From Planctomycetaceae bacterium (GTDB lineage Bacteria; Planctomycetota; Planctomycetia; Pirellulales; PNKZ01), in assembly GCA_016793115.1 (NCBI GenBank), contig JAEUIN010000102.1, forward strand, positions 1-64,000: a stretch of 64,000 nt of DNA, written 5' to 3'. Position numbers and translations under genes: made by a program. Within the stretch, counting starts at the first letter, position 1. Each line of letters starts with the position of its first letter. Positions 7,901 through 10,168 of the stretch are shown here, in pieces. The notes under the pieces were generated by a model that saw nothing but the letters and a program-made list of their open reading frames with translations, searched no databases and was not told the DNA's origin.

Positions 7901-8335
7901 CTACCGCGGCTTGCCGCCCGCGGCCGCCGTGCGACGACGCGGCCCCGTCGGCTCCGGCGGCGCGCTCTTCACCGCCGGTTCGGCCGCGGCGAGTCGGGGC
8001 AGTTCGAAGTCGTCGGCTTCGGCCACGGCCTGCAGAAGCGCACCGAGCGCCGCATCGCGCGACGGCGGCAACGCTTCCTCACCCGACATCCGCCGCCGCA
8101 ACCGGTCCAGCAGCGCCCCCTCGTGCAGCGTCAGCGTTACGACGATCGGGCGCTCGTGGCGAGGCCCGCCGTCGTCGGGCACGTCGAGCGCTTGCTGGTA
8201 GCGGCGGCGGACGTCGGCCTCGTTCGGCGCTTCCACCGTGAGGCGCACATAGTCGGGCCCGATCTCCGAAACGGTAACCGTGACCCCTTCGGCGATGACG
8301 AGCGACTGACCGACCTTGCGCGATAACACGAGCAT
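7901..8335 (-). CDS. csrA: CsrA-family RNA-binding regulator with long C-terminal tail
   Basis: Post-transcriptional regulator that binds GGA-containing hairpins in mRNA leaders. The start MLVLSRKVGQSLVI and the strands VTVTVSEIGPDYVRLTVEAP match the CsrA core (residues 1-50). The start is ATG 8335, preceded by AGGAG with 8-base spacing; an upstream ATG in frame would add 12 residues and is less likely. CsrA is normally 60-75 residues, but this one has 144: after the core come about 90 residues, first helical (ADVRRRYQQALD), then a segment with VVTLTLHEGALLDRLRRR and a Pro/Ala-rich, basic end. The usual LxRxE region is replaced by VRRRYQQAL. No flagellar genes or fliW are next to it. Confidence 0.85.
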   Translation of the reverse strand: MLVLSRKVGQSLVIAEGVTVTVSEIGPDYVRLTVEAPNEADVRRRYQQALDVPDDGGPRHERPIVVTLTLHEGALLDRLRRRMSGEEALPPSRDAALGALLQAVAEADDFELPRLAAAEPAVKSAPPEPTGPRRRTAAAGGKPR

Positions 8336-8647
8336 GTGCCAAGCTCCTCGCAGCATACCGAAACCCCTCACGCCGCCTGCGCATGAACGCGGTCAAGTAT
8401 ACCGGTCGCTGCGCGCGTGTCACACATTTTGGAAACGCGGCGAAAGTTCGGGAGGCGTGGAAACGCTCTAAGTCGCGTCTCGTGATCGACGACCTAGCGG
8501 CAACCGCAGACGCGCCCCACCAGGGCAAGAAATCGTAGGAAACGCCGGTGGATGAGCCGCCCGTGAAGATATAGGAAGCCGGGGCTCCCGGCGGGATACA
8601 TTTCGGGGTGTTCAACGTCCCGAGTATCCCGGCGCAGGAACCCCGAC
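8336..8647. other. csrA promoter region, then left end of the IS110-family element
   Basis: The first part, next to csrA, should hold its leftward promoter. From about 8570 the sequence belongs to the insertion element (left subterminal repeat TATAGGAAGC at 8570-8579). A hairpin at 8592-8631 (CGGGATAC with GTATCCCG, plus an inner TCGGG/CCCGA stem) lies 16 bases before the transposase start and may limit transcription or translation entering from outside. Confidence 0.5.
8592..8631 (+). promoter_or_regulatory. Hairpin just upstream of the transposase start
   Basis: CGGGATAC (8592-8599) pairs with GTATCCCG (8624-8631), and TCGGG (8603-8607) pairs with CCCGA (8619-8623) inside it. It may sequester the transposase ribosome-binding region in transcripts entering from outside, or serve as an end structure for the recombinase. 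Function is inferred. Confidence 0.4.
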
Positions 8648-9718
8648 ATGAGCGTTCATTTTATCGCGTTCGACGTGCATTGCGAGTTTTGTGAGATGGC
8701 GGCTTTGTCCGCGACCGGCCGCGTCGTGAAGCGCGTTCGCTGCGACACGAACGTGCCCGCCTTGGTCGCCGCGTTGGAGAGCGTGTCGGGGCCGCGAACG
8801 TTGACGTTCGAGGAAGGGCCGTTGGCCGATTGGTTGGCGCGCAGCCTGCGGCCGCACGTCGAACGCTTGATCGTCTGCGAGCCGCGGCGCAACGCTTACA
8901 TCGCCAAGGACGGCGACAAGGACGATCCGCTCGACGCCGAGCGACTCGCGCAGCTCTTGCGCGGCGGCTACTTGAAAGAAGTCCACCAGACCGGTTCGCT
9001 CGACCGGGCCGTGCTCAAGCAGCACGTCGGGTTCTATCACGATCGGGTTCGCGAGCGGGTGCGGCAAGGCCATCAACTCACGGCCTTGCTGCGCCGTCAC
9101 GGCGTCTTCGTTTCCATCGACGACGTGCGCGAGGCGCCCGAGTGGACGCGAATCCTCAAGGCGTTACCGGCGCGGAAGACGCTCCGCGACGACTTGGAGG
9201 CGGTTCGCGAAGTCTACGAACTCTTGCGGACGCAAGAAGAGCGGCTGCGGGCGGAACTCGTGCGGTTGGCGCGGCGCGAAGAGCCGGTCCGTCGCTTCGA
9301 GCAGTTGCCCGGCTTCGGCTGGGTTCGCTCGCTGACGTTTTACGTCTACGTCGACACGCCGCAACGGTTCCCGAGCAAGTCGGCGCTGTGGCGCTACTGC
9401 GGTCTCGGTCTGGAGCGGCGCCATAGCGGCGGCGGACCGACGAAGGTTCGGCTCACGCACCGCGGCAACCGCCGCTTGAAGGATCTGTTGATCGGCGCGG
9501 CGAAGTCGGCCGTCGCCCAAGCCTCGAGCCCTTTCGCCGACAAGTACCGTTATTGGACCCGGGAGGAAGGACTGCATCCGTCGGCCGCGCGGCGCAACGT
9601 GGCCCGCTGCCTGGCGACGACGTTATGGAGTTTATGGAAGACCGGCGAACGCTACGATCCCGCGCGGGTGCGCGGCGTCGGACGGCCGTCGGCGTCGAAC
9701 GAAGTCGAACTCGCATGA
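8648..9718 (+). CDS. IS110-family transposase (DEDD recombinase)
   Basis: A 356-residue recombinase with the two domains of the family. The N-terminal RuvC-like domain begins MSVHFIAFDVH (first acidic residue Asp9), continues with TFEEGPLADWLARSL and the KDDPLDAERLAQLL helix that supplies the remaining acidic residues. The C-terminal Tnp_20-type domain contains FEQLPGFGWVRSLTFYVYVD, ALWRYCGLGLERRHSGGG, where the Ser after RRH fits the conserved catalytic serine, and the HRGNRRLKDLLIGAAKSA helix. Members move by recombination guided by a structured RNA from the element's noncoding end. Length and motifs are complete, so it should be active in principle. Confidence 0.92.
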   Translation: MSVHFIAFDVHCEFCEMAALSATGRVVKRVRCDTNVPALVAALESVSGPRTLTFEEGPLADWLARSLRPHVERLIVCEPRRNAYIAKDGDKDDPLDAERLAQLLRGGYLKEVHQTGSLDRAVLKQHVGFYHDRVRERVRQGHQLTALLRRHGVFVSIDDVREAPEWTRILKALPARKTLRDDLEAVREVYELLRTQEERLRAELVRLARREEPVRRFEQLPGFGWVRSLTFYVYVDTPQRFPSKSALWRYCGLGLERRHSGGGPTKVRLTHRGNRRLKDLLIGAAKSAVAQASSPFADKYRYWTREEGLHPSAARRNVARCLATTLWSLWKTGERYDPARVRGVGRPSASNEVELA

Positions 9719-10049
9719 GCTTATGCGGCGGAGTTCCTCGGGTGGCCCTGAGCCGCGCACGCTTCGTGTGCGAGTTCCGGTCCGTGACTGAACCCGCCGC
9801 CTTACGAACGCACGCTCCGATCTCCGCATGGACCGCGCGCAAGCGACGAGTCCCCGATAGGTGCCTGGGCGACGTCTTTGACGATCTTCCCGACGTTCCC
9901 GCGGAACGCACGCGAAAACACGACTTCCCATCGACGCGACCGAACCGGAACTCCGCGCGAAGTTGCCGAACCGAAACGAATCAAAAGGCCCCTCTCCCGA
10001 CAAAGAGAGAAAAATCCGGGCCTCCGCCCGAAGTGCATCTTGACCGGGA
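9719..10049 (+). ncRNA. Candidate bridge RNA region of the IS110-family element
   Basis: This noncoding stretch between the transposase stop and the right subterminal repeat has the place and size expected for the guide RNA of IS1111-type elements. It contains a stem-loop at 9755-9771 and the decamer ATAGGTGCCT at 9857-9866, which recurs exactly at 10057-10066 across the right element end. A guide loop that copies the element end or its flank would give such a match. The RNA boundaries cannot be set by eye. Confidence 0.4.
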
Positions 10050-10168
10050 GCTTCCTATAGGTGCCTCCCGGGAAGCCTTGATATCGGCGGCCGTGTCCGT
10101 CGGACGCAGACGGCGGGGGTCAACTCCGCCGCTCGCCCGGCCGATTCAAGGCTGAACATCGTCGCCGC

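What the first reader, a model, noticed from the sequence alone, without database searches (positions are those of the whole stretch)
9719..10066. Candidate bridge RNA with a decamer matching the element's right end
The 330-base noncoding part after the IS110-family transposase contains ATAGGTGCCT at 9857-9866, and the same decamer recurs at 10057-10066 across the right boundary. A chance match of ten bases in this length is unlikely. Guide loops of bridge RNAs copy the element end and target, so this may be a guide segment of a programmable recombinase in the IS1111 layout.
Basis: partly seen in the sequence, partly recalled or inferred. Interest (0 to 1): 0.75.

Follow-up and report, generated by a model that had tools for sequence, protein, structure and literature searches.

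The report
Bridge RNA of a planctomycete IS1111-type transposon
The repeated ten-letter word is a guide inside a small RNA encoded by a jumping gene: the RNA copies both the transposon's own end and its landing site, and relatives that land elsewhere have changed the matching guide letters, so this is a natural, re-addressable RNA-guided recombinase of a recently described kind.

Summary
ATAGGTGCCT occurs at 9857-9866 and again at 10057-10066 across the element's right junction. The element (about 8566-10063) has an IS110-family DEDD transposase, sub-terminal inverted repeats and a 3' noncoding RNA at 9725-9875. Eleven related RNAs share a two-hairpin fold with many compensatory changes.

The first hairpin holds target guides (GGGTGG for the right half, GTCCGTG for the left half). 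These track the real flanks: relatives at quite different sites carry correspondingly changed guides (permutation p about 1e-5 right, 1e-4 left). The second hairpin holds donor guides. The decamer is the donor guide ATAGG, the TG core, then CC, which matches the first target bases beyond the junction. Its last T is chance: other copies sit next to CCA.

In two lineages whose element ends changed, both donor guides changed with them. The CC looks like a mirror image of the 'handshake' bases of IS621; support for that step is moderate.

It is a new member of a known kind (IS1111 bridge RNA/seekRNA). The extra is natural co-variation evidence that IS1111-type RNAs read donor ends, which the literature leaves open. 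No RNA or recombination was measured.

The parts
8564..8565 (+). TG core at the left junction (target half ...GCCCG to its left, element from 8566)
   Evidence: Comparison with contig-end copies L004, L005 and empty sites L037, L089
8570..8579 (+). left sub-terminal inverted repeat TATAGGAAGC, preceded by the left donor end AAGA
   Evidence: conserved in relatives
8648..9718 (+). IS110-family DEDD transposase, 356 aa (D9, E55, D93, D96 invariant across 8 aligned proteins including IS4321)
   Evidence: Pfam PF01548 and PF02371; NCBIfam NF033542 at E=2e-40, 138.9 bits against a cut-off of 140; alignment
9725..9875 (+). bridge RNA core (two hairpins); covariance model R1 match 127 bits
   Evidence: the window is one of the model's own sequences
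9725..9736 (+). target-loop stem, 5' strand (pairs with 9790-9800)
   Evidence: 6 of 11 pairs with compensatory changes
9740..9745 (+). right target guide GGGTGG, complementary to top strand CCACCC; the next two bases CC stand at the core complement and are imperfect here
   Evidence: Flanks of copies, permutation test
9750..9777 (+). apical hairpin of the target loop (stem 9750-9753 with 9774-9777, all four pairs compensatory)
9780..9786 (+). left target guide GTCCGTG including core TG
   Evidence: Matches left flank TTGTCCGTG of copies L004, L005
9787..9788 (+). AC after the core: proposed target-loop handshake bases (first base matches the left element end A)
   Evidence: inferred
9790..9800 (+). 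target-loop stem, 3' strand
9813..9817 (+). donor-loop outer stem, 5' strand CGCTC (pairs with 9867-9871)
9820..9828 (+). donor guide for the left element end, ATCTCCGCA (imperfect; relatives G606 and G547 have a perfect ATCTTCA)
   Evidence: weak in this copy
9830..9853 (+). inner hairpin of the donor loop (9830-9833 with 9850-9853)
9857..9866 (+). the reported decamer: donor guide for the right element end ATAGG + core TG + handshake CC + chance T
9867..9871 (+). donor-loop outer stem, 3' strand GGGCG
10040..10045 (+). TTGACC, -35-like box conserved at the right end (TTGAC in most relatives); would face the left end in a circular intermediate
   Evidence: promoter role inferred
10050..10059 (+). 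right sub-terminal inverted repeat GCTTCCTATA
10057..10066 (+). second copy of the decamer: right element end ATAGG, core TG (10062-10063), then target CCT

Best explanation
The region encodes the bridge RNA (seekRNA) of an IS1111-layout IS110-family insertion sequence. [quoted passage not shown] The transposase would bring target and circular donor together on this RNA and recombine them at a shared TG. The bases directly 3' of the core in each loop (AC in the target loop, CC in the donor loop) probably pair with the partner DNA after strand exchange, as handshake bases do in IS621 but on the mirror-image side. That is why the reported word runs across the right boundary into the target. Shown by sequence: ends, flanks, fold, guide-flank and guide-end co-variation. 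Inferred: transcription, binding, circular intermediate, strand exchange and the handshake role.
For: Element ends and target are fixed by near-identical copies at contig ends and by empty sites TTGTTCGTGCCACC and TTGTCCGTGCCACC. Shared fold in 11 RNAs: 97% of cells paired, 12 pairs with compensatory change (shuffles 5.7 +/- 1.4), slid controls at most 45% paired; RNAalifold gives the same target-loop helices and the same donor-loop outer stem, with a slightly different inner donor hairpin. Natural re-targeting: G097 GAGCATG|GCGCCA, G606 TGGGTTG|CCTTGCG, G547 |CATTGCGC, G1074 |CTACAC, each with matching guides; permutation p 1e-5 (right, 14 elements) and 1e-4 (left, 8 elements). Two elements of one genome (G504) differ by one base in the first position of the right flank and by the matching guide base. 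Held-out elements found by the covariance model fit on the right side: G148 GTGTGG to CCACAC, G560 GGGTGC to GCACCC. Donor guides track changed ends: G483 RE ACAGGTG with guide ACAGGTG, LE TGAGAG with guide CTCTCA; distant G912 RE ATAGATG|AC with guide ATAGATGAC, LE TGGTAAT with guide ATTACCA. Handshake base: 12 of 15 matches, p 0.007.
Against: No expression or activity data. This copy's left-end donor guide is weak (4 of 7 ungapped) and its right-target guide does not pair with the core T. The window's own site has one mismatch to each target guide. The handshake signal loses significance without the distant G912 family and the degenerate G560 (p 0.08), and G097 and G020 break it. The permutation tests do not correct for relatedness. 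The literature reports an 82-nt seekRNA sufficient for ISEc11 movement, which may exclude a donor loop (PMC11187229).
Confidence: 0.9

Rival explanations
1. Only the first hairpin is a working guide RNA (a short seekRNA); the element ends are recognised by protein through the sub-terminal inverted repeats, and the donor-loop match is a relic or is kept for another reason.
For: PMC11187229: the 82-nt seekRNA of ISEc11 is sufficient and only target matches were described. The left-end donor guide is weak in this copy. G560 and G619 have degenerate donor loops or ends.
Against: Both donor guides changed together with both ends in G483 and in the distant G912 family; the donor-loop hairpin is conserved with compensatory pairs.
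Confidence: 0.08
2. The decamer in the noncoding region is a third transposase-binding DNA site (a copy of the end), not an RNA guide.
For: It duplicates the right end sequence.
Against: It sits at a fixed place in a conserved RNA fold opposite a complement of the left end. It shares only ATA with the inverted repeat GCTTCCTATA. Its base after the core follows the target in most elements.
Confidence: 0.03
3. The decamer is a chance repeat.
For: A 10-mer match occurs in 0.8% of shuffles and a 7-mer in 44%; the last T is indeed chance.
Against: ATAGGTG is kept in all 11 aligned donor loops and in 10 of the 11 corresponding right ends, and changes in step with the ends in G483 and G912.
Confidence: 0.01

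Closest known systems
IS1111-group seekRNA (ISEc11, ISPa11, ISKpn4, ISPst6; PMC11187229)
   Same: Noncoding region downstream of tnp; sub-terminal inverted repeats; two target matches with the top-strand match 5' of the bottom-strand match; natural re-targeting among relatives.
   Different: Here a second, donor-reading hairpin is supported by co-variation; transposase only about 20% identical to IS4321 of that group; the conserved GL-P----SG motif reads GLGLERRHSG (no P).
IS621 bridge RNA (IS110 group; PMC11208160, PMC11208158)
   Same: Target loop plus donor loop, each reading both strands around a shared dinucleotide core; discontiguous donor guide; handshake bases next to the core.
   Different: RNA lies in the right end, guide order in both loops is reversed, core is TG not CT, inverted repeats are long, and the proposed handshake bases follow the left guides instead of the right guides.
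IS4321 (plasmid R751)
   Same: IS1111-type element; its 3' noncoding region also contains a copy of the right junction (ATAGATTC).
   Different: Target is the Tn21-family inverted repeat; no left-junction handshake match seen.

Membership tests
IS110-family DEDD transposase | DEDD_Tnp_IS110 and Transposase_20 domains with catalytic acidic residues | tested here: met
   PF01548 and PF02371 above cut-off; NF033542 E=2e-40 but 138.9 bits, just below its cut-off of 140; D9, E55, D93, D96 invariant
IS1111 group | sub-terminal inverted repeats of 7-17 bp | tested here: met
   TATAGGAAGC 8570-8579 and GCTTCCTATA 10050-10059
IS1111 group | long noncoding region downstream of tnp carrying the RNA | tested here: met
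   About 338 nt downstream, RNA model at 9725-9875
IS1111 group | top-strand target match 5' of bottom-strand match in the RNA | tested here: met
   GGGTGG 9740 precedes GTCCGTG 9780
IS1111 group | transposase clusters with IS1111 transposases; GL-P----S(T)G motif | tested here: inconclusive
   SG present, P replaced by L; 20% identity to IS4321; no labelled tree built
Bridge RNA | internal loop whose guides match the target and co-vary with it | tested here: met
Bridge RNA | second loop whose guides match the element ends and co-vary with them | tested here: met
   G483 and G912 families; left-end guide weak in the window copy itself
Bridge RNA | handshake bases pairing with the non-cognate DNA | tested here: inconclusive
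   12 of 15 matches, p 0.007; p 0.08 without G912 and G560
Bridge RNA / seekRNA | RNA expressed, bound by transposase, needed for recombination | not testable with these tools
   needs experiment

The most novel reading that the evidence does not exclude
IS1111-type bridge RNAs carry a donor-reading loop, and in both loops mirror-image handshake bases, so the RNA holds direct copies of both integrated junctions (left flank-core-left end and right end-core-right flank). Natural lineages re-address target and donor ends together.
Probability: 0.55. Interest if true: 0.6.

Novelty: new member of a known kind. Interest (0 to 1): 0.47.

Why it matters
Whether IS1111-type guide RNAs read the donor ends, as IS621's does, is unsettled: one study predicts it, and another finds a short RNA with only target matches sufficient. 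This planctomycete family offers natural end-and-guide swaps, single-base guide-target swaps within one genome, and a simple design rule (the RNA copies both junctions) that can be tested directly and would help reprogram these compact recombinases.

Tried and rejected
Rfam gave no credible match. Viral contigs and plasmids held no close relatives. ATCTTC at 9884-9889, first taken as the left-end donor guide, was rejected because relatives lack it; the conserved position is 9820-9828. The five G012 copies look like a different layout, with only a short stretch after tnp before the apparent right end, and gave no test. A single-strand fold of the window RNA is not exceptional by energy (z -1.45); the case rests on comparison. 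A sigma-70 scan found no promoter inside the linear element; the conserved TTGAC at the right end suggests a promoter only at the circle junction. A PDB sequence search gave only a marginal match (E 0.05) to the ISCro4 transposase structure. I did not predict a protein structure: the domain assignment was already clear.

Full report
Observation. The decamer ATAGGTGCCT is at 9857-9866 and 10057-10066. Against 20,000 dinucleotide shuffles of the noncoding part, a 10-mer shared with the 36 nt around the right end arises in 0.8%. The match alone is therefore modest, and it was picked after the fact.

The element. The ORF 8648-9718 is an IS110-family transposase with the four acidic residues invariant among relatives. 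The whole genome (411 contigs) holds further copies broken at contig ends. Their left junctions read TTGTCCGTG|AAGATATAGGAAGC (L004, L005) and their right junctions GCTTCCTATAGGTG|CCACC (L002, L003, L006), against GCCCGTG|AAGAT and GGTG|CCTCCC in the window. Uninterrupted sites TTGTTCGTGCCACCC, 800 bp from an occupied site with the same upstream flank, and CACGGACAATTGTCCGTGCCACC confirm the join: TG is common to target and element ends. The element is thus about 8566-10063 with sub-terminal inverted repeats TATAGGAAGC and GCTTCCTATA. The window copy sits at an off-consensus site with one mismatch on each side, which is why the tenth base of the decamer (T) matches only here.

The RNA. Relatives were collected from about 2,000 genomes of the same order, class and phylum. 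Eleven noncoding regions align. RNAalifold recovers two hairpins: 9725-9800 with a large internal loop, and 9813-9871 with a second. In the hand-drawn version of this structure 97% of cells pair, 12 of 24 pairs have compensatory changes, and sliding the partners drops pairing to 45% or less. A covariance model found the known copies and new ones.

Target guides. In the first loop the 5' side is complementary to the right target and the 3' side copies the left target: GGGTGG and GTCCGTG in the window. G097 (three copies) inserts at GAGCATG|GCGCCA and has TGGCGC and GAGCATG. G606 inserts at TGGGTTG|CCTTGCG and has CGCAAGG and TGGGTTG. G601 inserts at GGCCATG|GCACCC and has GGGTGC and GGCCATG. 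G547 and G1074 follow on the right side. In genome G504 two copies differ by G/C in the first base of the right flank and in the paired guide base. Permuting flanks among elements gives p about 1e-5 (right) and 1e-4 (left); relatedness is not corrected for. Two elements found only by the RNA model, G148 and G560, fit on the right side without adjustment.

Donor guides and the decamer. The second loop carries ATAGGTG on its 3' side, identical to the right end plus core. Most relatives share the end, so conservation alone proves little. The informative cases are those with changed ends. G483 has right end ACAGGTG and left end TGAGAG, and its loop carries ACAGGTG and CTCTCA. The distant G912/G997 elements (33% identical transposase) have right end ATAGATG and left end TGGTAAT, and their loop carries ATAGATG and ATTACCA. 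In G606 and G547 the left-end guide is a perfect ATCTTCA; in the window it is degraded (ATCTCCGCA), reminiscent of the discontiguous donor pairing reported for IS621 (PMC11208160).

Handshake. In IS621 two bases next to the core in each loop pair with the other DNA after strand exchange (PMC11208158). Guide order is reversed in IS1111-type RNAs (PMC11187229), so the mirror position is directly 3' of the left guides. There the target loop has A (matching left end AAGA) in the window family and GT in G912 (matching left end GTAAT). The donor loop has C, G or A, agreeing with the first target base in 12 of 15 elements (p 0.007; 0.08 without G912 and degenerate G560). For G002 the consensus flank of its other copies was used; with its own flank the count is 11 of 15 and the p value is unchanged. 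This explains CC in the decamer. I rate this step as moderately supported.

Context. In 11 of 21 left flanks the junction lies at the end of a hairpin arm containing the left target, resembling REP-type targets reported for other members of the family. TTGAC is conserved at a fixed distance before the right-end TATAGG-like block and would face the left end in a circle, consistent with a junction promoter as described for ISEc11 (PMC11187229); this is inference.

Verdict. A genuine IS1111-layout bridge RNA, new as a member, with useful comparative evidence on donor reading. Steps not shown: transcription, RNA binding, circle formation, recombination. The paper search covered only an open-access library.

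Noticed in passing
window 7901-8338 (-): CsrA-like ORF (MLVLSRKVGQSLVIAEGVTVTV...) starting about 230 bp left of the element; the insertion lies in its upstream region.
   Followed up: no
L069 (G002:C9:22588-22622): A short stub of the left end directly followed by the right target half (TTGTCCGTG-AAGATATAGGAAGCCGGG-GCCACCC), perhaps a deletion or excision footprint.
   Followed up: no
L006 (G000:C296:22629-22723): Solo, diverged right end (86% identical) without transposase.
   Followed up: no
L089, L037, L065, L049, L043, L053: Targets are often hairpins (e.g. CACGGACAA..TTGTCCGTG|CCACC), REP-like; different lineages hit different hairpin families at the same position.
   Followed up: partly
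L045, L048 (G504, G619): Transposase genes with an in-frame stop; the G619/G560 lineage also has a degenerate donor loop, possibly moved in trans or dying.
   Followed up: no
L058-L060 (G912, G997): Distant IS1111-type elements at TCATTGCGAGG..CCTCGCAATG repeats; left target guide, both donor guides and both handshake bases match their junctions, and the right target guide matches fully in L058 and partly in L059 and L060.
   Followed up: partly
window 8648-9718: Weak NCBIfam match to the TIGR-Tas endonuclease model (E 8.5e-12, below cut-off).
   Followed up: no
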